Positions 10,519 through 51,678 of a stretch of 51,678 nucleotides of DNA are shown in pieces. A model generated the notes under the pieces. That model saw only the letters and a program-made list of their open reading frames with translations, had not been told where the DNA came from and did no database searches. Every line of letters begins with the position of its first letter. Positions within the stretch are counted from its first letter, which is position 1. The translations under genes and the position numbers were made by a program. The DNA is from Ectocarpus siliculosus (Eukaryota > Sar > Phaeophyceae > Ectocarpales > Ectocarpaceae): assembly GCA_000310025.1 (NCBI GenBank), contig FN649740.1, forward strand, positions 2,990,824 to 3,042,501. Reading direction: 5' to 3'.

Positions 10519-13500
10519 TCAGGGCTCGTACAACAGTGTGTGTCGCCACCACTGCCACATTAGGAAATCAACGGCAAGCCCCATCACAAGAGACGCGCCC
10601 TCGAAAAACGCCACCGCACCCCAACCCCGCCACTCTCTGCCAGCCTTTTTCGTGTTGGAAACCCTCCCGGCACCATCAACACCCCCGCCACCACCAGTGC
10701 CGCAACTATCGCTACCATTCTTGGAGGTGATGGCATGCTGCTCTCCCAGATCCCGCGCTTGGTCAACCACAACATATGATTTCTCGGAATGATCTTCCAA
10801 GGTTCCGTCTGACGTTTCCACCACTGTAGATCCACAGGAGACGTCCGCCGCAGTGGCCGTTGCGCCCGGCTGCGATCTTGTAGCTGCTGAACTCGACGGC
10901 AAAACTGCCTGCTCAGCGGGAGGTCCAGTCCCGTGACGATCGCCACTGTCTTCGCCGGAGGCCCCGGAAACCGCCGCGCTTTCGGAGATGATGCTCCTGA
11001 CGGGGTACATGGCGTCCCACCCGGAGATGACGAAGATGGAGAGGACGAGGGAGAAGGTGCTCACCGGCCAGCACGTCCGGCGCATCGCGACGAAGGTGAC
11101 CGCCTCGTGGACAAGGCTCGAGAACAAGAAGGCGGAGGTCAACGCCAGGAGTCTCCGCCATGTCCACCGCCGTTGCGTCTGCTTCTGCTGCTTCTGCTGC
11201 TGCTGCTGCTGCTGCTTCTTCTCCTCCGCGTAGCCTCCTTGCTGCTGGTGCTCCTCCGATTTCCTACACAACGTCCCAGCCAGTCCCCGGCGGACCCCCC
11301 CACCACTACGCCCCGGTTGGGAGAAAGCAGCGTTCTTGTGGCCAACAACAGGCCTGTAGATGCACGAAGACACCCACCGATGGACGGGTGTGGACCACAG
11401 GCGGTACATGGTATCGGGCTCCTCTGCGAGCAGCCACCACGGCCCTGCAGTTGTGGGCGAAAAGGAGATGAGGCGCGGGGGGGGGGGTGGGGGGGGGCGC
11501 CGGGGGCTGGGTGGGGCGGTGTGTTGGGAATCGGGGGAGCACCTGGAGGTAGGCGGCTCCGCGGCGGACACGNNNNNNNNNNNNNNNNNNNNNNNNNNNN
11601 NNNNNNNNNNNNNNNNNNNNNNNNNNNNNNNNNNNNNNNNNNNNNNNNNNNNNNNNNNNNNNNNNNNNNNNNTTATGTGGCAGGAGAAAAAAGGTGGGGG
11701 GGGGCAAGACGGGGGAGGGAGGGAGGGAGGCCAGGAGGGTGGGAGAAGAGTAAATTGAACCTTCGCGAGACCAAGCCGTAGAAACTAATCACTCAATCTT
11801 GCGGGGCGCTCTTTTTCCTGCTTCAGCACAATATACGTACTTTGGCGCGGGCCCGTCGCACTGGGAACCGCAACACCGAGCCAAAACTATCAGCGGGACA
11901 TACTACAACGACAACGACGGCAGCGACAGCCATTAAAAAACATTGCTGGGACGAGCGCCGTGGACTTTCCGTAGAACGAAAGCCCTGAATATGGTCACAC
12001 AAACGTAGGCGTTCAATCGCAGGTCGGAGAAACAAAACAACAGCAAAAAAATATTGCTCCGTGTCTTACAGCTCGAAATTTTGTGTATCGACGACGGTTC
12101 TCTTTGGGGGGAGACTAACTTATGACCAAGGGCTAATTGGGTATTGTAAGGAATATATTCGGGCCATCCCCATGTTTTCCATGACAAAATCCCTTTCTGC
12201 TGTAGCGTACTTAGGATCAGTACGGAAGGTGTGAAGCCATTGGGCAGCGGTCAGCAAGGTAACTCAATTTCAGATAACAAAACATTGACGTCGGAAACAA
12301 CAGGCCTCGTCTTTCGAAGCAACAACAACCAAAAGCTAATACTCGTAGCTCCTTCCTCCTTGTTGTGTCTCTCACCGTAGAAGTTGCGATCGGGGTAGCC
12401 CCACAGCTCCGCACAGCCGAGACACACACAGTGCCAGAAGCCGTAGAAGGCCATGAAGTGCACCATCGGAGAAAACACGAGCATAGCCAACGCCGATGCA
12501 GCGGCGATCCCCCACCACCCGGCCAGTCCCGCGCCGCCGGCCCCGCCGCAAAAGAGCGACTCGAAATAGGAGATCGCCGCTGTCTCAGGCCCCCCTCCGT
12601 CGAGCAGCAGGGAAAAGAACCACCCGCCGCTCCCGCCGGCGGTGTGAATCCCCTCCGCCCCCGCCCACCCAACGCAATCCACCCAACCAATCGTCGCCCC
12701 ATTAAACGGCGACCCTCCGCACGTGTGTTCGCCATCGCCGCTGCCGCAGCCGCGAAAGTCGGAGGCAAGCGCCGCTTGGGCGCTCTCGCCAACAAGCGAA
12801 GGAGACGGGGTAGAGAAGACGGCCGCAGCCACGACGCGCATGACCGGCGCAAAGAACGCCGAGCAGGCGGCGTGGAGGGCCACGAACACGAGCACGGCGT
12901 GGGAGAACTCGGAGAACGCGCGGCCCGGGCAGGGGGCGCGTCGAGCGTGCTTTCTCAGGAACTCCGGCTCGCACACCTGGGCACACGTAGAAAAAACGGC
13001 TGTGGATGGCATTTGGACGTGGTATACAGAATCTGAAGACCTAGCACCGCACGAAACACGAACTGCGAGAAAAATATGTACGGGGATATATGCATGCGCT
13101 CTGAGTTTGGTACGTTCTAACTTGGGATCATGCCGTAATTTCGCCTTTGGAACAATAGAGCGTGCCCAAGGTGTTTACCTGATGTGAAACGCCCATCAGC
13201 GAGGTAGGCAAGTGGGTGTGGCAGACGCTGGAGCGCCCTCGTGATTCGAGGGCAACAACAACATGAAGCAACAAAGACTGGTCGACGTGGTCGAGTTGCA
13301 AAAAAAGCCGGGGTTCGATAGCATCCCTTCTGAGACCGTAACGGGGAACTACAAGACCTCCGGGTACAAAGATAGGCAGCACTCGCCGTTTCCGATTCAC
13401 ACGCACCAAGGATGGAGCCGCCAGGATGAAGAACAGAAACTCCCCGAAGGTTAGCAGCGGCGGGCCGGCCAGGTCGCCGTCCCCGCAAACGTCTTCCCGC

Positions 13501-13997
13501 GACCTCGTCTCTCCCCCGCTAGGCGCCCCCGTCGCCTCCGCCGCTTCCTTTGCCGTGGTAACGGGTGCATTGAAGCAACACCACGACTGCGCAAAGGAGG
13601 CACTCTTGAGGGACAGGCAGGCACTTAACAGCCCGACACTCAATCCCGAGGCGAGCCCCCAGTCCAGGTTAACCGAGCCCCAAACCGCCAACGTCCAGAT
13701 CGGTAGCGTCGTCGACGCAACGACCATGGCGCTCAACAGGGGAAGGAAAGGCGACGACGACGACAACGACGACAACGACGACAATTGCCGCCGCTGCGAC
13801 CCAGGCGAACGACGTTCTGATTCCGCCTGGCCCTTCCCCGCGCCCCCTGCCGGCACTGCTGATGGTGGCCTAGTGATGAGAAGATGCAGAGGGTATGCCA
13901 GGGTGGCCACGAGAGCCATCACGAACCTGCCGACGCGTGCTTCAGGAATCAGCACGTTGGAAAGATAGTCGACATTCACAACGGGCCAACCACTCAT
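10519..13997 (-). CDS. DGAT1-type diacylglycerol acyltransferase (MBOAT)
   Basis: DGAT1 enzymes are ER membrane proteins that acylate diacylglycerol with acyl-CoA to make triacylglycerol. Three exons join in phase: 13997-13407, 12976-12376 and 11444-10519 (stop TGA at 10521-10519). Junctions rebuild family motifs: APSLVCEPEF spans exons 1-2 (family APTLCYE.NFPR) and NFYGPWW spans exons 2-3 (family FYxDWW). Exon 3 then gives LWSTPVHRW (family WNxPVHxW) and SSLVHEAV with the catalytic-type His-Glu pair, and ends in a hydrophobic C-terminus. Several hydrophobic segments are visible in each exon. From the ATG at 13997 the protein is about 705 residues, longer than plant or animal DGAT1 (about 490-530) because of Q-rich and G/S/T-rich insertions. 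The usual YRGxxN-type first membrane segment was not found, so an upstream exon may exist. Sterol O-acyltransferase is the main alternative in the same family; DWW-like spacing favours DGAT1. Confidence 0.82.
11573..11672. other. Assembly gap (100 N)
   Basis: Exactly 100 N, the usual placeholder for a gap of unknown size. It lies within the last intron of the DGAT1-type gene and does not interrupt a coding exon. The flanks are G-rich (11477-11500 and 11693-11740), a likely cause of the sequencing failure. Confidence 0.95.
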
Positions 13998-16900
13998 CCA
14001 GGACCGTGTGCAGGGGTAGTTTGGGCGTGCTGTCGACTAGGCTCTTTTTTCTCGACTCAGCCTGGAAGAGCGCAAACAAGGGCTTCATCGTCACAATTTT
14101 TACTCGCCGAGCTATCCAGGCGATACATCGGCAACATAATACATTGGAGGTAGGTGCGGTTGAGGCTCCGTCAGGAGCTCCCAAAAAGCAGGGAGCGACT
14201 CACGAACAGCGGCACGCCAACGAGTGAAAGTTCATGCAAGGAGCCCGAGCAGAGGTGAGTCGTGAGAGCCGAATGCACAGGGGACTCCGTAACTCCCAAA
14301 TCATCTCAGATCACACCATACCAACCCGGGACTCCGTGTATCGTACCGACCACCGTGCACACCAAACAAACGCTCTTTCTCTCACATGCAAGCGAGAGCC
14401 TTCCCGATCCCCTCGAAGTGCCTCGCCAACAGGTCGAGCGCCAGCCCCTTCGTCAGGAACGCTGTCCACTCGTCGACTACCGTGGATGCCGCCGGTGTTT
14501 CGAAGTCGGCCGAAGGCGCGGCGGCGCCAGAAAACTTGGCCGAACAAGCCGCAAGGGCAAGCAGCGCAACCGTCCTGGCATTCAGCAGCCGCGGGACGAG
14601 GGACGATTCACAAAAGCTCGCGCGCTTGTTTGTCACGCGCAGTAGGCAAACGATGCAGTGAACCCGCCCACCAACACCACCAAGAGAAACAAAACTTGGA
14701 CACAAAATTAGTTTGGTAAGACTCAGAACAAAGCGTAGGAGCAGACTGGCCAATGGGAGCTTCGGTCGTCTCTCACCGCTGTCAATAGTTTGGGATCAAC
14801 ATGCATCACTGCCGTAGCGTTCAACAGCGTATGGTCTGTTTCTTGTGGGGACCTTCGGAAAAAATGCTCGAGCTCACCATGGCGTGGTCTAAAATCTAGT
14901 CTATACTCGCGTTTGGTTTCAAGCCTCTGTTGTAAAAAAAAAAAAAAGAGGTGAATATAGTATGGGATAATATCCTTCAAATCGAGATTGGAAGGAAAGG
15001 AGGAGATTGGGAGGGTGTCTTCACCAGCCGCGGGAGGTGAGGACACTGTCTCATCCCACACTATATGGGAAGAATAAACCGTCACGAACATACTGATGTA
15101 TTCTGAGGAACGGATCTGGGAATGTTCTAAACAATTTCCAGAACCGTGCACAGACAAAAAGAACAGATATGAGAGAAAGCAATTTCACCATCACTTCTTT
15201 ATTGCGACCGAGTGCCGACACGGAAAACAGGAGGCAAGAGGGAGAAAAGTTATAGCACCGCCCACCCTAAAACAAGTGAGAGTTGTCACTGGCTTTCCCT
15301 TAATAACGTGTCTTTTATTGCGTGACAGCGCTGGAAATAGTTTATCCGTTTCATACTCGTTCTTCATGGTCCACCGTACTGGTGAACAGCGAAGTAGCCA
15401 TGGTTGAGCTGACGCCTGCTGACAAGCAGCGGTGCCAGCCGGAACAAATGGTCACTGCTGTCTCATCATGCATTGTTGTTAAGTGCATGCAATCACGCAC
15501 TGCCATGCGCCAGTTCTCAAACTACGGTAACACCTTCCACACGTTATACCATGATACCAGGTACGGAGTACTTGGTGTGGTGAGGAGAAGATATGCGAAT
15601 GCGGGGTAACCAGAGAGTTGAGAGTTGCGGGGGAGAGGAGACCGGCATTTTCCGCAGCATTTCGGGCGAGTCGCACATCGAATGCAGGAGATTCCAACTA
15701 CCAACTACAGTGCCCACGCGTCTCTACCTGTGTCGGTGAAGCCCCCATCTGAAGGCGTGCTGCAATTCGTGCCTCTTGATCAGTAGTGAGAACTCCGGGT
15801 ATTTGGTCGGATTGTCCAGAAAAGGCTGCTCTCTCATGATCCTCGTCATGGATCTCTTCTAAGTCTTGTCTTCAGTATAGAGCTACCGGCCCGGCGTTGT
15901 AAAAGTCCGAACTGCAAGCAACTCAAAGAAGGAGCGCGGATCCACCCATAGTTGGCACGCAAAGCTTCAGTGCGCCTCTACCTATAGGGAGAGTCTGGTC
16001 CTTGTGGAGTCATGGTCACGCAGCCGATGATGGGGCTCCGCGGAAAACAGAAGCACGTACCTGCGGGGCACCGTCGGCGAAAATTTGAAAATTTGAAAGC
16101 TGTGAAATCCCTGCCATCTCTACTCTGTACTACTGCTGTAACTAGGCATAATGATGGAGTTTGTTGCATGTTGCATGTATTCGTGGGAAAGCTAGCTAAA
16201 TACAGAGTAGACAAGGAGAGAGAGAGAGAGAAAGAGAGGAGAGCACAAAGGGAGCATTTTTTATGATGTTGTACAATGAAGCGAGTTGTGTGCACGTGTC
16301 CACAACGGCGCAGGGCGGTCATTTTTCCAAGTCATCTCAAATGTGTGCTTCAGTCTCTGCAGCAACACCTGAGCAACACATTGTGAAAATGTCAAGACAA
16401 CAATAATACTTGATGATATCAACAGGAACACCCAATATTTCGCCCGATGTGGTGACGCAAAAAAAAAAGTCAACAGTGTAGTACGTACAGCAGTAGTCTA
16501 GATAAGCTTTCACACAGAGCCAGCTCTCTTGTCACCAACCTCTCCCACAGAAAACGCATTTTTGGCGTAACACCCCCCCGCTCGGCACGGACAGCTGTAC
16601 GTGTCTAAACAGTGCATTATCATTTTTTTATTTTTCTTAATATGACACCACGAAGCCATCTCCATCATAGAAAAGAGTCTGAGACAGATTAGCAATGGAT
16701 TCATAGCGTCAGAAAAGTACCTGTATGTCTACGATTTCCCAGACAGCATATAGGGACATCTCCCCTGCGGGTAACAGGCTCAACAAGACAGTTTGGTGGT
16801 TGTCTTGTGTGTCTCATATATGTTATGTTGGGAAGGTGCAGATGATATGTGTTAGGTACTGGTCGGGCGTTTTGTGTGTGGCACCCTTTTAGTCATATGG

Positions 16901-43094: not shown

Positions 43095-46000
43095 ATGGGC
43101 GTAGATATTATCTCCCTGGTGTCGCTCATATATCAGGCCGGCGGTGCCGTCATCCACCAGTGCAAGCTCGTCAAGCAGTGTCCCGGGCAAGCCGCACGCC
43201 TCGCGATGCGGACGCAGAACGTCCTGGGGTTGCTGAGTTCGGCAGCGGAACAATTCGAGGGCAATGTGGCTCTTGAGACGAGCCTGCTGGAGCTCCGAAA
43301 CGTGCTGCTGCGGGTTATCCAGCTGGTCGAACGGTGCAAGCAGCCTGCGCGGTTCTCGGCAAAGGTGCACAGACGGAAAAGTTCTGGCGAGATTGCCACG
43401 AAAATCTCTTGTGTGTTGTTAGCTTCAACTCAACCGCGTGAGGATACATCTTCACATAACACACCGTTTTCGCATTTCCTTTCAAAGTGCAAAACCGGTT
43501 TAGACTTATTATTATGTGTTTTGTGCTGTCTGTGCGTGCGTCGGTGGTCAAGCCTGGCCGTGTTGATGAAGGTGACATGTGCGCTGCTGTTGCGACACAT
43601 TTGGTCTCGTGTCAAGGCGTTATTTTGTCTCCCATCTCCTCCTCTCCGTGCAGTGGCTCATTTCTCATTCGATCCCAAGTTTTTGCGTCCGTCAGTGCAA
43701 TGAGATCAGGTGACAGCTATTCCGGCATGAAGGCTACAAAAGGGTGACGTTTTCCTTCTCACAATTGCCCCTTCACTGACCAAGTTGTTTTTAGCCTTGA
43801 CGCTCTCGTTCAGTGTTTGGCAGCACGACTCTCTACTTCTAACTTCGTGTCGGTCGGCCTGTTGTTGCCTTGAATAAAAACCAGGTGCTTCGTGTTTTTC
43901 GCATCAAGGCCACCAAAGAAGCCCTCGTGGGAGCTGAGGCGGACCTCGAGCGCGTCACGCGAGACCTCCGCCTACCGTTGCTGACGGACATCAAATGCCA
44001 GCTTGGCGAGATCAAAGATCACGTCGTGAACGATCCTCAGCAAGACAGGGCTGCTGCTGCCGTTACAACCGCCGCCGCCACGGCTAACGGCGACCAACAA
44101 CAACAACAAGCGGCGGCGGCAGCGGCAGCCGCGACCGCGTTGAAGAGCCAGGGTCGGGCCGCGGACCCGCTGGACTGCGCGGATGAAGCGCTGATACAGA
44201 AGGCGAGAGACGCAATCGACCGAGGGATGATGGCCCGCAGCACGAACGGCTCTACCGTCGGAGAGGTCATCCGCGGGGAAATCGCGAAGTCGGGAGTAGT
44301 GAGCCCCCTCACAGAGACCGGCGGCGGCAACCACGGCGCCGGTGGCGGCGATGCGGATCGCACCGCCGGCAGTCTCATCGTCCACGTAAAGCGCGTCCGA
44401 TTCGAGGCCCTGGAGGAAGAGGAGCAACTGGGCCTGGGAACGTTCGGTGTGGTGCTGGCGGCGAGGTACTTCGGCCGCGACGTGGCCGTCAAGAAGGCTC
44501 GGGCTGCCTGCACCAGCCGGACACTCGAGGATTTCCGGTGCGTTGTGGGTCTGTCTGTGTGTGCCGTGATGCTTTTGGTGTTTGTGGTGCTGTGCTTGTT
44601 TTTATCGTCGTCGTTCGGGGGCCTCCGGGTTGAAGAAGGGCAAGAGGAGCAAGAGGGGATCTGTAGATGACTTTGAGGAGCCAATTGGCGTACCATGAAC
44701 GCATCTCATCTCCGATAGTTGATACAAGCGGAATACTGGATGAAAAGTTGAAATTTCTACTGCCGCTGCTGCTTCTGCCTTGGCGGTTTTCCCAGAAAAG
44801 GCGGTTGGAGGCGGCAGCAATGCAGGCATGTGTGTTTTCCCGGGGTCGGCCATCTCGACGAGATGCAACAGGCTGTCTTCTTGGAGGTTCTGGATGTCCA
44901 GATTTTGCTCGTCTTGTTTCTTGTACTTTCGGCTCCGGGCCGCAGCTGCTTTTTTTCGCAAATCCTGGATCCTGACTTGGTGGGGGTCTGCCGGGTTCCC
45001 CGCTGCTTTTTCCTTGCGCTCTCTGGTGTCGAATTCAAATTCGGTTCAACATCACCCTAGTTTCTGTAGAAGTGCGAGCGCTCTGACTACAACGCAATAA
45101 TTGGCAATAATTGGTACCCCCGGCCTCTGACGTAACTTGACAACCGAGTTTGAACGACAATCGAATGGACACCGTCACAGTGAGGGTCCACGGCGGTCCG
45201 TCAGGGACGGAGTTGGAGCCCTAACTCAAAAACCCTACCCCGATCAAGCTTGGGACACGACGAAACCGTGTGTGCCCCAAATAACTTGATCAATTCCTGT
45301 CGAAGGAACATGTGTTGGAGTAACTGTTAAGGTACTACTGACTTGACCACAGAATTTCGGGCTGAAGCCCCTCGACTCCTTGTGGGCTGGGTGGGAGAGA
45401 CCAAACGCGTTGAATTTTCTCGGAAATGTCAACAAAGTCAAGTGCGCGGACAAGTTGACATGTTGCATGACGTAACGTCCCACCCAAGTGTGCAGATTTT
45501 CTTGTTCCGAAGGCGATATTTGATGGTTTGCCGTGCTGTGCTTTACAACCTACGGTAGGCAACAGGAGGGAGGCTCAAATTGCATTTGAGGCAGACGTCA
45601 CAAACAGGCGATGGCACATGCGTACGACACTTGGCCCTCGTCTCTCGTCGCAGGCAAGAGGCCGAACTTCACTTCGCGATGCGCCATGACAACATCGTCG
45701 AAGTCATCGCCTTCAGCGTTGGGGACGCGGTCCACCCCCCCTGCCTGGTCATGGAGAGGATGGACGAGTCGCTCTATGAACTGCTGAGCCTGCAGCTCAG
45801 CATCAACTTCCCGTGGGCCCTCGGAATAATACACGATGTGTGCAAGGTAAACTTCAACTGTGGTCAATTTCAGTAAACTCGAATACCCTGCAGCAGAAAT
45901 CTCCTACCCCGAATATTGTTCAACTTCTTGCTGACCGACGGTCAAACGCAAAATACAAATCCGCAACCTTGATCGTAGTGTGGTTGCTATTGATGCCGCC

Positions 46001-46394
46001 GCCGCCGCCGCCGCTGTTGCCGATGGTTTCCCAGGCCCTTCACTTTCTGCACGCACATAACATTGTGCATAGAGACATTAAGAGCCTCAACGTCTTGCTA
46101 GACGCAGGAGGCACGGCCAAGCTTTCAGACTTTGGCCTCGCCCAAGTGAGCTCGACCGTCAACAAGGACACCGGCGGCACATATCACAGCAAGGTGCCGC
46201 ACTGAGTACCCCCAATACCTGTTTTCCACAACAACGTTCCGTGGAGTGTCTGCACTTCCGCACAGCATCGTTTTCCGTGCCCGATTTCTGTTGTTGCTCT
46301 CGTAGAAGTGTAGGCTAGAAAGTGGGGGTGTTTTTGTCGCACAGCATTTCAGCGCTTTTGGCGACGTATTCCCCTCCGCACCTCCCGTCTCTCC

Positions 46395-46433
<39 letters not shown>

Positions 46434-47547
46434 CTGGGTGTTGGTGTTCAAAGGTTGGTTCGGACTTCTGGATGGCGCCGGAGGTTCACGTGCATCGGAA
46501 GGCCACCGCTCTGTCGGACATCTTCAGCCTGCACGTCGTCATGTGGGAGGTGAGCTTCTACTTGACCGCACCTATCGTATACCAGTGCTTTCTTCTAAAT
46601 GTTTGTTTTGTTGGTGTTTTTGTTTGGTTCCTCGTGAGAGTGAGCGCACCCCGGTAGGCTCAAAGCAGCCACGAACCCCCCTCCTTACGGCAATAGTGTA
46701 CAAGGAGCCAGAACCGAAGCAACCGCTACCGGAACAGTTGGCCTGCTAGCATCTCTGATTGCTAGGAAATAAGTCGACCCAAAGCAGCAGGTCACCGCGG
46801 AATGCCCCCATCCTCACCTGCTAGCGCGCTTGCATCAATCATCGACAAACTCGGGTCGGATGCCCCGAAAAACGAATCGAAATCAGGTAATTACGAACCA
46901 GAAGGCGGGAATCGGTCCTCCTGTTGGAGAGCTCCTCCTCCGAGCTCCGAACGCCAGGCTTTCCCTCGAGAGCGCTTCTGGCCCAGCGCCGCTCATTGAG
47001 CGCATGCAAGACCTGCTCGACCGTTGCGGTTCTCTCCACGACAAAAACAGGCCGACGATGAAGGTCATCGCCCCCGAGATTGCGGCCTTGTGCAAGGCCG
47101 CCGGTCAGGAAGACATCAGTCACCGAGATAGCGCAGTTGTTGAAGAAGGGGCTGAGGAAGAAGAGCAGCAAGAACAGCGCCAACAGCACCAGCACCAGCA
47201 CCAGCGGCAGGAGCAACATCAACAGCAACATCGGCAACAGCAGCAGCAGCAGCAGCACCATCAGCCGCAGCAGCAGCAACAACAGCAGCAGCAACAGCAG
47301 CAACAACAGAAGCAACAACAACAAGTGGTGGTGGAAGTGGCGGACGGCACGAGGCAACCCGAGCAGTCAGTAGCTGGTGATGAACAGCTGGAGGCGACGA
47401 GAGCATTGCATTTGCCGTCCTTGCACTCCTATCATGGACAGTCTCAAGGAGGAGCTGGTTCGGGCACAGCTGGTAACTCGGCCGATCCCGACAATCATGA
47501 CCACTTCGGCAATGGCGCTATTGGCGGCGGCACCGGCGACGTAGAAA

Positions 47548-47588
<41 letters not shown>

Positions 47589-47906
47589 ACGGACACAGGA
47601 AGAAGGATCTCCCCTCGCACAACTGCTGTGGCCATGCGGCGGCAACCATCAGCAGCGGACGCTCCCAGCAGTTCAACTGGGAACTACACAAGCCGCCACA
47701 GCGGCAAACGGAGCCGGCAGGACAGCGACGGACGAGAATCCACTGAAGATGCTCATGCCACCGCTGCTACCACTGCCGCCACTGCTGGAGGAGACTGGAG
47801 GTCGCTCCCCACAACCGCTGCAGCCCTCCGAACACCGTCCGACGCCGATGGCAGCGCGGAGGGAGACTGGCAATCGCTATCATCGCCCACGTTGCTCGCC
47901 CTGCAG

Positions 47907-47992
<86 letters not shown>

Positions 47993-50900
47993 GTCGGCCG
48001 CCGCTGGGCGGATTACCTCCGCCACGGGGCGCGGCCACGACTACGGGGTACGGCAGGGCAACCGAAACAGCCGCCAATACGGCATGCAGCCTGGCAGACG
48101 AGACCGGGGGCCTGCAGCAGCGGCTGCGATGGCCTTACGGCAGCAACCGACCATGGCAGCTAGTAGTCCTTTCAGCTACAGCGAAAGCTACAGCGAAAGC
48201 TTCCACGACTACGGGGAGCGGCATGGGTGGGAGGACAACAGCCTCTCCGGGGATGATTGGGGGATGTTATCACCTCCTGCCATGTCTGCGCAACAGCAGC
48301 ATCAGTCGGCAGCGATCCCCAACTTTGCGGCGGTCGACTACGGCAACCACCGCCACCACCACCACCACCAAATCTACAGCGAGCGGAGCGGGCGAGACCG
48401 CGCAGGCGCGGGCTGTACCACCCACAACTGGGCGCCACAAAGTTCTAGTTGTAGCACTTTTGTCCAGCAACAGCAGCAGCCTTTTGTCCACCATATCCCT
48501 GAAGCCCACGACAACCGCGTCTCCGTCGAATTGAGCGAGACAGGCACACGCTACCCGGGAGATTTCGGCGGTTTCAACCGCGCAGGTGACGGCATCACAG
48601 AAGAAGGTGGTGTGACTGCGGGGGGAACTTGGCAGACTCCAGGCTCGTTCTCAACCAGGCGGCAGCGGTCGGGATCTTCTAGAACCCCCCCCGCCTACGG
48701 CTTCGTTCGGCCACCAGCCCACCCGGAAGCCGTCAGGCCGGGGTTCCAGCCGGGGTTCCGTGAGAGGGCCGGTGGTGCAACGCCGGAGGCCGCCATGCGC
48801 CAGCCACCCCCACCCCCGCCGCCTTCCTCGTCCAGCAGCCCGGCCACCCAAGGCTACGGCAGCCGCGACTGCGTCGAGCTAGGCCTGTCCACGTCCGGTT
48901 CAGGCGTGGGGTACCCGGACTTTCTGGGTCGACAGAATCGGCTGCCGAGCAGCTCGGCGTCAACAGTCAGCAGCTCGTTTCGCGACGGGAAGGAGAGCGG
49001 CGGCGGCAGCACCGGCGGGGGTGCCCACGGAGGAACGACGCCCGACTTGAGCAGCACCAGTGGGGAGACCGTGGTCCACGGCTACGCTCAGTCCCGTTGG
49101 AGCAAGAGGGCCGCCATCGCCGCGGCCAGGAAGCACAAAAATGCAACGGCGAGGGTTGGCGCCACGATCGGTGGCCAGACGCGTATACCCGGCAGAACGG
49201 TCGCCGGGGCGTCCTCCGGCACAGTGCCTGTAGTGGCGCCGGCGATGCGCAACACGCAGCCGGCGATCCGGAGAACCCCCGACACAGGGCCCCTGACCGC
49301 CTTCAGCCTCATGGGCACAGCCCCTTCCAAGGAGGAGGCAGCGACGACTAAAACAACAACCCCGACTGGCGGCAGCGTTGACAACGTCAACAGCAGTGAC
49401 CCGAGGAAACCCGTCGCTGCTAACAGCGATGCCCATGGCGGCGGTGGTGGCCAGACGTTTGGCGGAGACATCCCGCACTCGGCGTCCGGGGACTCTGACG
49501 CCGGATCGAACAACGGTGTCCGCGATGAAAATAACGAATACGAAACGGAGAACGGGCAGGCGGAAGCTGCGGGGGCAGGTCCGACAGTGCGGGGCAAAAC
49601 AGCGGAGGACGACGAGGACCACACGCACCAGACGCGCAAAGAAGATGGCCTGTGGGCGGGAGGACTGGGGTTGGGCACGTCGAAGGAATCGGCTCGCTTG
49701 GACAGCGTCGAGAACCAGCAGCAGGTGACGGAATGGTGCCGGTCAGTAGGCGGTTGGCTGGTCCCCTCTCTGTTGTACAGGGGGCGTCGGCTTGTGTGGT
49801 ATCCAAAGATCTGCGGCAGATTTTACTAGCAATCCGAGTTGAACAGAATCGTATCAAACAATCCACACCCTGCACAATACTCGCAAAACAAACCAGAAGC
49901 ATACAGCAAACACTAACCGGTCTGTCACGCGTCTTTTCGCAGAAGCTTCATCAGCAGCATGAGGAGGAGGCCAGCGAACAGCAGAAGGCAGAACAAGACG
50001 CGGAGGTGGAAGGGGAGGGGCTAGAGGAAGAGGAACGCGTGGACGACGACTTCCCGTTTCCGACGTCCGGCGAGGAGAAGGAGGGGCAGCGCATCACCAC
50101 CCACGACCGCGCCGTGCTCATGATCCTCTTCGAGGTGTGGAAGGGCCCCGCCTGGAACGGCAACGCCAACTGGGGGTCTGACGCTCCTCTCGAGTGGTGG
50201 TACAACGTTTCGGTGAGTGCCCTACGGTTTCCTGCGAAGCGCCCTTGAGCCGACCCTTGCACATCCTCGTGCGGTCGTGGGTCCTCTACTGGGCGGGTTA
50301 CGTACGGCGGGTGGCCACAGCAGTATTAGTACCCAGATGGTAGAGTCAATTTGTTTTTTGCTTTGAACTGGTAGCCTATGTTAGGTACATGCCCGAAGAT
50401 TGTCTTGATGAACTTCCGATGTCATTTATCAACGAATAAACCCAGGTCGATCGAGGCCGCGTGACCGAGCTCATTCTCCCTAGGAACAACATCTCTGGTG
50501 AGACTGAGCGATGCTACAGTTTTAATGGACCGTTCCTCTAAGCCCGCGGTTCGCCTGTGCACTGGTCGACAACACCCGCCGGCCGCGCTTTAATACGGGG
50601 TTCCGTAGTTTTGTTGTTGTTGTGGTGGGCTGGAATGTGAGAAGTGGGCTCAGGTTCCTTTTTATCTCCGTTACCAAACGCTGGTGCGATAGAAGAGCAG
50701 GATGGATTCGTGTGTCGAGCTTCGGTGATTGTTCCATTGTTGTTGTTGGTGTTGGTGGTGGGTGTTGGGCTTGGTGTCGTTCATGGTGCAAAGTCGTCGG
50801 ATTCGATGCTGCTGGTGCAGGCTTCGCCGTATTCCTGGCTGTGTGTGCCCTCCGCCAACCAACCGTCTTACCCGTCCCGCACATCGCGTGATCCGCCGCT

Positions 50901-51678
50901 GTCTAGGCGAAATTCCGCCGGAACTGGGCATGCTCTCCTTCCTTCAGGAGCTCCGTCTACACAGAAATTCTCTCAGGGGTAAGTTCGCTGGTGGTAGGTT
51001 CCGGAACGAGAGTGGCACACGGGTCACAAACGATGCCATGTCATTCCGATATTCTTTGGCGAGATACTGGGTGTGCCCCGAAAAAAAGTGCCCCGTCCCC
51101 CCTCCGTTGTGTTTCTGACTTCGACACGGAATCTTGTATGTATGCCTACGCATGCGACCCTTGACTTTTGACCCCTGTCTTTCCCGCTGCACTGCCCTCC
51201 TTGTCCTGGTTCCGGCCCAGGTCCGATTCCTTCCGCAATCGGGGGCCTCAGTTCGCTGTACCACCTCGACCTCCGCGGCAACAACCTTTGCGGTGACGAA
51301 AAGAGGGAAAAAGTTAAAAAAAAAACACTTCTGGCCTGTGTTGAGTGAAAGAGGAGCTGCAGATAGCCTTGGGCTGCCTTGTCTTTCCTCTCCCGCTGCC
51401 CATGCCTGGGTTGGCCTCTAACACTTAGTAGAAAGTCCGTTGCTTGAACCACACTCCCTCCGGAACTGGGCAATCTTTTGCTTCGAGGAGGTGACATATC
51501 AGGGCAAGGCATACCTCCACAAGCGCGGTGCTCTTGTTAGAGGAGAGCAATTGGACTTCGGGTTGGGAGGCTCCAACTTTCACTGAACCAATCCGCCGGT
51601 GTGCTATCAATGCTCGACATCAAAACGTGGGTGGCTCTATTGATACCCTCCCGCCCCCCCCCCCCCCCCCCCATATAC
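43095..51678 (+). CDS. MLKL-like helical bundle + kinase + LRR protein, 3' partial
   Basis: Ten exons join in phase: 43095-43412, 43885-44537, 45654-45846, 46035-46193, 46454-46549, 46791-49724, 49943-50212, 50446-50497, 50907-50978 and 51221-51292; the gene runs off the window (over 1600 residues). The start has ACCATGG context. Residues 1-150 form amphipathic helices resembling the MLKL-type four-helix bundle ([27 protein letters not shown]). A TKL-like kinase domain follows: GLGTFG (about 289-294), VAVKK (Lys about 309), HRDIKSLN (about 400-407), DFG (420-422), MAPE (448-451), [11 protein letters not shown], and KNRPTM in exon 6. All catalytic residues are present, so an active kinase is expected. 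A linker of about 950 residues rich in Q, S, G and A leads to an LRR N-cap ([23 protein letters not shown]) and LRRs such as [19 protein letters not shown]. No membrane segment is visible, so it is probably cytosolic. The exon 1 donor is the least certain junction. Confidence 0.83.
46394..46430. repeat. (TC)n tract before a kinase exon
   Basis: A long (CT)n run lies in the intron 24 bp before the acceptor of exon 5 of the kinase-LRR gene and serves as its pyrimidine tract. Confidence 0.8.
47910..47993 (+). repeat. Coding CAG/CAA repeat (28 Gln)
   Basis: Twelve CAG, fifteen CAA and one CAG codon in frame encode 28 glutamines in the linker of the kinase-LRR protein. Other glutamine-rich stretches at about 47164-47325 and an alanine run at about 47550-47588 lie in the same exon. 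Pure triplet runs of this sort vary in length between individuals. Confidence 0.9.
50907..51292 (+). other. Two single-LRR exons of exactly 72 nt
   Basis: Exons 50907-50978 and 51221-51292 are each 72 nt, each begin and end in phase 1 (splitting a glycine codon), and each encode one 24-residue LRR of the GxIPxxLGxLxxLxxLxLxxNxLx type. The preceding 52-nt exon 50446-50497 carries the start of the LRR array ([13 protein letters not shown]). Such symmetric exons can be duplicated, deleted or swapped without breaking the frame. Confidence 0.85.
51455..51600 (+). pseudogene. Decayed LRR exon remnants
   Basis: ACTCCCTCCGGAACTGGGCA at 51456-51475 closely matches the start of the intact LRR exon at 50907 (ATTCCGCCGGAACTGGGCA), but it lacks an acceptor AG in the right place and diverges after about 35 bp. 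A second fragment at about 51555-51597 (GGGAGGCTCCAACTTTCAC, then CTGAACCAATCCGCCGGTG) reads like the second half of an LRR exon with a small deletion that breaks the frame. Both appear to be relics of former LRR exons. The intact array may resume beyond the window. Confidence 0.5.
51654..51672. repeat. C homopolymer at window end
   Basis: A run of about 19 C ends the window and may mark another sequence break. Confidence 0.8.

What the first reader, a model, noticed from the sequence alone, without database searches (positions are those of the whole stretch)
43095..51678. MLKL-like bundle, active-looking kinase and C-terminal LRRs in one protein
The order is unusual. Plant LRR receptor kinases place LRRs first, outside the membrane, with the kinase inside. 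Here an MLKL-like helical bundle comes first, then a complete kinase domain, a 950-residue Q/S-rich linker, and LRRs last, with no membrane segment. MLKL-type bundles are known to disrupt membranes in cell death, and LRRs commonly sense pathogens, so this could be an intracellular immune receptor linking sensing to a death effector. Exon phases agree across all junctions, including between linker and LRR, which supports a single gene. That immune role is inference.
Basis: partly seen in the sequence, partly recalled or inferred. Interest (0 to 1): 0.88.

Follow-up and report, generated by a model that had tools for sequence, protein, structure and literature searches.

The report
MLKL-type bundle, kinase and LRR protein
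This gene appears to encode one long protein that joins a cell-death-type helix bundle, a protein kinase and a leucine-rich sensor in an unusual order, and a second copy in the same genome shows that the order is real, which makes it a good candidate for an internal immune receptor that has still to be tested.

Summary
Ten in-frame exons (43095-51292) encode an N-terminal MLKL-like bundle, a complete TKL-type kinase (8e-42) with HRD and DFG, a 928-residue low-complexity linker and plant-type LRRs. Decisive test: a paralogue on contig C22 is the best foreign match for bundle (54%), kinase (66%) and LRR cap (59%), in the same order. There, kinase C-lobe, linker and LRR cap share one exon, so two genes are very unlikely. 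C22 is a pseudokinase (HRN, DVN) with eight more 72-nt LRR exons, in the register of shuffled LRR exons of brown-algal ROCO genes (PMC11378527). The bundle assignment is borderline by single sequence (27.1 bits alone, 23.4 in context; cut-off 27), significant by profile, undecided by structure. MLKL_N-like bundles also front NB-ARC genes here, which supports an immune role by association only. Death activity, ligand and localisation are untested; the 3' end reads N. My searches showed no description of this order. New variant of a known kind.

The parts
43095..43364 (+). exon 1: MLKL_N-like bundle, first three helices
   Evidence: AlphaFold2 on this exon alone: helices at residues 5-26, 30-53, 58-81, mean pLDDT 72.6
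43885..44537 (+). exon 2: end of bundle (to about 44031), Q/A-rich spacer, kinase N-lobe from 44371 (GLGTFG, VAVKK)
   Evidence: the C22 bundle reads through the exon 1/2 junction in one frame
45654..45846 (+). exon 3: kinase, helix C to hinge
   Evidence: 70% identical to C22:124937-125137
46035..46193 (+). exon 4: kinase catalytic core, HRDIKSLN and DFGLA
46454..46549 (+). exon 5: kinase, APE region
46887..49724 (+). exon 6: kinase C-lobe end (to 47096) and most of the low-complexity linker
   Evidence: linker part has no Pfam match better than E 0.8
49943..50212 (+). exon 7: end of linker and LRR N-cap (from 50099)
   Evidence: 59% identical to C22:129123-129344
50446..50497 (+). exon 8: LRR 1
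50907..50978 (+). exon 9: LRR 2, exactly 72 nt, codon split one base/two bases at both ends
51221..51292 (+). exon 10: LRR 3, exactly 72 nt, same register
51293..51678 (+). unresolved 3' part (a degenerate LRR-like stretch near 51460, by eye); sequence beyond reads N

Best explanation
One gene encodes an intracellular receptor of the form MLKL-type bundle - TKL kinase - long flexible linker - LRR. Most likely mechanism: the C-terminal LRR array, built from interchangeable 72-nt exons, binds a non-self or damage ligand; this relieves the resting contact between LRR, kinase and bundle; the kinase phosphorylates itself or a partner; and the freed bundle oligomerises and puts its hydrophobic first helix into a membrane, causing permeabilisation and local cell death. 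Shown: domain order, single gene (by paralogue), intact kinase motifs, low dN/dS in all three domains, register of LRR exons, MLKL_N-like bundles in front of NB-ARC genes of the same genome. Inferred: ligand sensing, activation order, membrane damage, immunity.
For: Gene model; domain scores; MLKL tops the PDB list with the six-bundle profile; paralogue C22 with the same order and one exon joining kinase C-lobe to LRR cap; dN/dS about 0.19 (bundle), 0.20 (kinase), 0.19 (LRR) with a poorly conserved linker; 72-nt LRR exons in the register described for shuffled ROCO LRR exons; MLKL_N-like bundles in front of NB-ARC, in one gene with TPRs after it, and of other kinases; the N-terminal helix is the most hydrophobic 19-mer of the readable protein, 1.62, as described for HeLo/HELL domains in PMC10197012 (passages); wheat Pm13, an MLKL_NTD-kinase, confers mildew resistance (PMC10951266, passages).
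Against: The MLKL_N score is borderline: 27.1 bits for the cut piece, 23.4 in longer context, cut-off 27; the C22 bundle alone does not hit MLKL_N; the three-copy profile is not significant against PDB MLKL; phmmer of the window bundle finds no MLKL. Exon-1 fold search: 0 of 272 matches with E <= 0.001, no MLKL in the 50 rows shown. Two of the three NB-ARC-linked bundles are under the cut-off, and their profile matches the window-type bundle only weakly. C22's first helix (1.35) is less hydrophobic than other stretches of that protein. Pfam finds nothing in the 570-residue C22 exon; its two ends are recognised by BLASTP to the window only. dS is 1.2-1.9, near saturation. No expression, localisation or functional data; a later membrane segment is not excluded.
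Confidence: 0.48

Rival explanations
1. A signalling kinase with no killing function: the bundle is a regulatory or dimerisation module, the LRRs bind an endogenous partner, and the output is phosphorylation in growth or stress signalling.
For: Kinase motifs intact here and, by eye, in the C10, C29 and C33 kinases; LRR sequence is generic plant-type; helical bundles are common in regulation; MLKL_N score borderline.
Against: MLKL_N-like bundles also head NB-ARC genes; C22 keeps bundle and LRR while its kinase lost HRD/DFG, so kinase activity is not the only conserved purpose.
Confidence: 0.35
2. Two neighbouring genes: a bundle-kinase gene ending near 49829 and an LRR gene starting near 49943.
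For: Exon 6 reads on to a stop at 49829 if the intron is retained; the LRR query matches 147 places in the genome, so LRR caps of this kind occur elsewhere.
Against: In C22 kinase C-lobe, linker and LRR cap are in one exon, 570 residues without a stop; co-location expected by chance 0.003 times; splice sites and phase fit.
Confidence: 0.03
3. A decaying or damaged gene with no present function.
For: 3' end runs into Ns; degenerate LRR-like stretch near 51460 by eye; the C22 sister has a young dispersed repeat between bundle and kinase.
Against: Ten exons open with intact splice sites; dN/dS about 0.2 in three domains.
Confidence: 0.08

Closest known systems
Animal MLKL (with RIPK3)
   Same: N-terminal MLKL_N-type bundle followed by a TKL-type kinase domain; the best PDB match of this kinase is RIPK3 (E 1.7e-26), with TAK1, CTR1 and IRAK4 close behind
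   Different: kinase here has HRD and DFG intact; linker and C-terminal LRRs are absent from MLKL (recalled). The C22 copy is a pseudokinase, as animal MLKL is (PMC8816944, abstract in a search listing).
Plant MLKLs and wheat Pm13 (MLKL_NTD-kinase)
   Same: bundle-kinase order; Pm13 is said to have the key kinase residues and gives disease resistance (PMC10951266, passages)
   Different: 476-residue protein without linker or LRR
LRR receptor kinases of plants, oomycetes and Ectocarpus
   Same: LRR plus kinase in one protein
   Different: there LRRs are extracellular with a membrane segment; 2 such genes are reported for Ectocarpus (PMC3268121, passages). Here LRRs are C-terminal and no spanning segment is seen.
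NLRs with HeLo/CC/kinase N-termini; brown-algal NB-ARC-TPR genes
   Same: killer-type bundle first, repeat sensor last
   Different: a kinase and a long linker stand where NB-ARC would be
Brown-algal LRR-ROCO genes
   Same: LRRs on single 72-nt exons, nucleotides 3-71 coding 23 residues (PMC11378527, passages)
   Different: LRR-ROC-COR order, GTPase instead of kinase

Membership tests
MLKL family | N-terminus over the Pfam MLKL_N cut-off (27 bits) | tested here: inconclusive
   27.1 bits for residues 1-146, 23.4 within 538 residues
MLKL family | homology of the N-terminal bundle to MLKL bundles | tested here: met
   six-bundle profile: MLKL is the top 7 of 28 PDB matches, best E 2.6e-5; three-copy profile alone not significant, E about 0.3
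MLKL family | four-helix bundle in a structure model | tested here: inconclusive
   exon 1 only: three helices; Foldseek 0 of 272 at E <= 0.001
MLKL family | TKL-type (pseudo)kinase domain after the bundle | tested here: met
   PF07714 8.1e-42; RIPK3 best PDB match
MLKL family | kinase is catalytically dead (animal MLKL) | tested here: not met
   HRD and DFG intact in the window; the C22 copy has HRN and DVN
MLKL family | protein ends with the kinase (recalled for animal MLKL) | tested here: not met
   linker and LRRs follow; in C22 they are in the exon of the kinase C-lobe
MLKL family | membrane permeabilisation and cell death | not testable with these tools
   needs expression
LRR receptor-like kinase | N-terminal extracellular LRRs, membrane segment, C-terminal kinase | tested here: not met
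   order reversed; highest hydropathy 1.62, only at residues 2-20; 3' end not readable; no signal-peptide program was run
NLR | NB-ARC or NACHT domain | tested here: not met
   none found in bundle, spacer, kinase, linker or LRR pieces
Shuffling LRR-exon genes of brown algae | each LRR on its own 72-nt exon in one register | tested here: met
   exons 9 and 10 of the window; in C22 8 of 8 LRR exons have AG before and GT exactly 72 nt later, in frame. LRR 1 in the window is on a 52-nt exon. Shuffling itself was not tested.

The most novel reading that the evidence does not exclude
A further eukaryotic design of intracellular death receptor: sensor, kinase switch and MLKL-type executioner in one chain, with a sensor diversified by exchange of 72-nt LRR exons, and with an active-kinase copy (window) and a pseudokinase copy (C22) acting as a RIPK3/MLKL-like pair within one family; in this lineage the bundle is a common killing module attached to kinase-LRR, NB-ARC-TPR, LRR and zinc-finger partners.
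Probability: 0.3. Interest if true: 0.87.

Novelty: new variant of a known kind. Interest (0 to 1): 0.72.

Why it matters
If the bundle kills, necroptosis-type execution would exist in a lineage far from animals, plants and fungi, fused directly to a sensor and a kinase in one chain. It would tie the question of how such algae recognise and contain pathogens (candidate receptors described, outputs unknown) to a concrete, testable effector domain that several receptor types of the same genome appear to share.

Tried and rejected
Two-gene reading: rejected because of C22. A membrane segment after the LRRs of C22: frames of 45 residues or more between 132.5 and 136.7 kb reach at most 1.62 in hydropathy, none shown to belong to the gene; the last LRR exon, if unspliced, meets a stop after two codons; not proof of the gene end. 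N-myristoylation at G2: motif not met. phmmer of the window bundle against PDB: chance matches only, best E 1.3. Bundle tree of ten genes: 0 of 7 inner branches starred, so no branching claims. Profile comparison of window-type with NB-ARC-linked bundles: probability 41.7%, 56 columns. C33 helical region before its kinase: no MLKL_N match, so its bundle is by eye only. Inverted repeats around the C22 repeat: none at the settings used. First gene model with mistaken borders, replaced. Prior descriptions: the listings showed none of this domain order; most subscription papers are not held, and Zambounis et al. 2012 (PMC3341825) was not held, known to me only through papers citing it.
Full report
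What is there. The window lies at G000:C15:2990824-3042501 of a 189-Mb assembly. From the ATG at 43095, ten exons with GT/AG borders give an unbroken 1558-residue reading. Residues 1-146 match PF22215 MLKL_N (E 3.3e-6; 27.1 bits, cut-off 27); within 538 residues the score is 23.4 (E 4.6e-5). Exons 2-6 hold a protein kinase (PF07714, 8.1e-42) and the C-terminus matches LRR families. The kinase keeps [18 protein letters not shown] and APE. Its best PDB sequence match is RIPK3 (1.7e-26), closely followed by TAK1, CTR1 and IRAK4 among 2652 matches, so 'TKL-type' is as far as this goes. The exon-6 part of the linker (876 residues) and the spacer before the kinase hold no convincing Pfam domain.

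Is the bundle really MLKL-like? Alone it finds nothing in the PDB. A profile of six bundles from this genome (window, C22, C485, C10, C29, C14) has MLKL in the first seven places of 28 matches among 177,635 sequences, E 2.6e-5 to 3.7e-4. A profile of the three nearest copies only gives MLKL at ranks 2-6 with E about 0.3. The C485 copy (37% identical to the window's) scores 33.4 bits; the C22 copy does not reach MLKL_N. AlphaFold2 on exon 1 alone gives three helices (5-26, 30-53, 58-81; pLDDT 72.6), and Foldseek finds no significant solved fold (0 of 272 at E <= 0.001; no MLKL in the 50 rows shown). Homology is supported by profiles, borderline by single sequence, and not decided by structure.

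One gene or two? Searching the host genome with the bundle gives C22:122694-123089 (54%) as the best foreign match; with the LRR cap, C22:129123-129344 (59%); with the kinase, C22 exons at 124.4, 124.9, 126.1, 126.7 and 127.6 kb (46, 70, 53, 61, 63%): same order, same strand, within 7 kb. The C22 exon 127584-129294 reads 570 residues without a stop, from the kinase C-lobe (66% to the window over 73 columns) through a linker to the LRR cap and first LRR (62% over 55 columns). The window's introns between linker and LRR cap, and within the LRR cap region, are absent there. Pfam recognises neither end of that exon on its own (0 families); the whole C22 kinase domain scores 1.8e-37. By domain, window and C22 are 54% (bundle), 66% (kinase), 32% (linker, poorly alignable) and 69% (LRR) identical, with dN/dS about 0.19, 0.20 and 0.19 for the three domains (dS 1.2-1.9, so rough). 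The simplest reading is a whole-gene duplication with all three domains kept.

C22 as a natural variant. Its kinase reads HRN for HRD and DVN for DFG: a pseudokinase. From the donor of its second kinase-coding exon to its last LRR exon the borders are GT/AG; the border at the repeat described next is not determined. Eight further LRR exons follow, 8 of 8 with GT exactly 72 nt after the acceptor AG and in frame. A dispersed repeat (40 full-length places at 98-100%, this one included; 40 of 107 candidates scored) lies between its bundle and its kinase, so this copy may be freshly interrupted, or the repeat is spliced out; not decided.

LRR exons. Exons 9 and 10 of the window are 72 nt with codons split one base/two bases. 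PMC11378527 (abstract and passages) describes LRR exons of brown-algal ROCO genes as 72 bp with nucleotides 3-71 coding 23 residues, reports exon shuffling and alternative splicing, and says that most of 15 other shuffling-LRR sequences in S. japonica contain only LRRs. The arrangement here is the same (that paper calls it phase 2). I did not test shuffling.

The bundle in the rest of the genome. PF22215 finds ten places, four over the cut-off; one of the ten is the window's exon 1 (19.9 bits) and C22 is not among them. Neighbours: C10 and C29 carry a kinase with HRD and DFG (by eye; C29 tested, 2.6e-36); three C21 places are followed by an NB-ARC frame (one tested, 1.2e-15; two by eye), and downstream of the tested one, in another frame of the same strand, lie TPRs (TPR_12 1e-18); C485 is followed by GRF zinc fingers (1.7e-8); C24 by a sub-threshold PDZ match (16.9 bits, cut-off 27) and LRRs; C14 (26.3-26.9 bits, just under the cut-off) continues into hydrophobic stretches. 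None of these genes is confirmed by cDNA. The bundle thus looks like a mobile N-terminal module that also heads NLR-like genes. That is the main support for a receptor role.

How it would work. Per PMC10197012 and PMC9950082 (passages), MLKL/HeLo bundles act at membranes, MLKL by oligomerising, HeLo/HELL domains through an N-terminal helix with membrane propensity; in this protein the most hydrophobic 19-mer is residues 2-20 (1.62), though in C22 other stretches exceed the first helix. The simplest model is LRR sensing, relief of inhibition, kinase switching, bundle release. All steps beyond the anatomy are inference. I give 0.48 to this model, 0.35 to a non-lethal signalling kinase, 0.08 to a decaying gene and 0.03 to two genes.

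Against what is known. Pm13 is a bundle-kinase of 476 residues (PMC10951266, passages); animal MLKL likewise ends with the kinase (recalled); LRR receptor kinases carry their LRRs in the extracellular part (PMC3268121, passages); in Phytophthora infestans transmembrane TKL kinases with extracellular LRRs are described (PMC3019232, passages); moss and monocot NLRs may begin with a kinase (PMC10952240, passages). I found no report of bundle-kinase-LRR in the listings, within a library that lacks most subscription papers. It is not an MLKL by full definition (kinase intact, extra LRRs), nor an LRR-RLK, nor an NLR; it is a new variant among MLKL-type bundle-kinase proteins, in two copies.

Limits. 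One genome only; no expression data; gene end hidden by Ns (assembly gap or withheld); a survey of other algae was not possible with these tools.

Noticed in passing
G000:C21 around 3137075 (-), 3142917 (+), 2955352 (+); loci L008, L010, L014, L065: Three NB-ARC frames are preceded by an MLKL_N-like bundle (28.6, 20.2, 16.4 bits; one over the cut-off); one is followed by TPRs. NB-ARC-TPR candidate receptors of this lineage may carry a HeLo/MLKL-type domain.
   Followed up: partly
L052 (C485:50445 onward): The nearest bundle after C22 (37% identical) sits in front of GRF zinc-finger repeats; no kinase frame was seen in the 13 kb read after it.
   Followed up: partly
L054 (C24:539501-549500): MLKL_N bundle (two frame pieces joined by eye, 32.7 bits) upstream of a weak PDZ-like stretch and several LRRs on the + strand; not shown to be one gene.
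   Followed up: partly
L009 (C14:554023-554328, - strand): MLKL_N-like bundle (26.9 bits, just under the cut-off) in one open frame with two strongly hydrophobic Gly/Ala-rich stretches (hydropathy 2.27 and 1.69).
   Followed up: no
L049 3090-3990 (C22:123090-123990): A dispersed repeat found at 40 full-length places (98-100% identity, this one included) lies between bundle and kinase of the C22 copy: a young mobile element.
   Followed up: partly
L013 (C25:273917-274087, - strand): A bundle-kinase relative of C10 and C29 with frame breaks; looks like a decaying copy.
   Followed up: no
L064 (C33:1465501-1475500): A related kinase (46-54% by exon) with similar exon borders by eye, preceded by a helical region without a Pfam match; no LRR seen by eye in the 10 kb read.
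   Followed up: partly
window 10522-14036, minus strand: Frames resembling a membrane-bound O-acyltransferase of the DGAT1 type, by eye only.
   Followed up: no
window 51640-51678 and beyond: The window ends near a poly-C run and then Ns for about 17.5 kb as far as fetched, hiding the end of the gene.
   Followed up: partly
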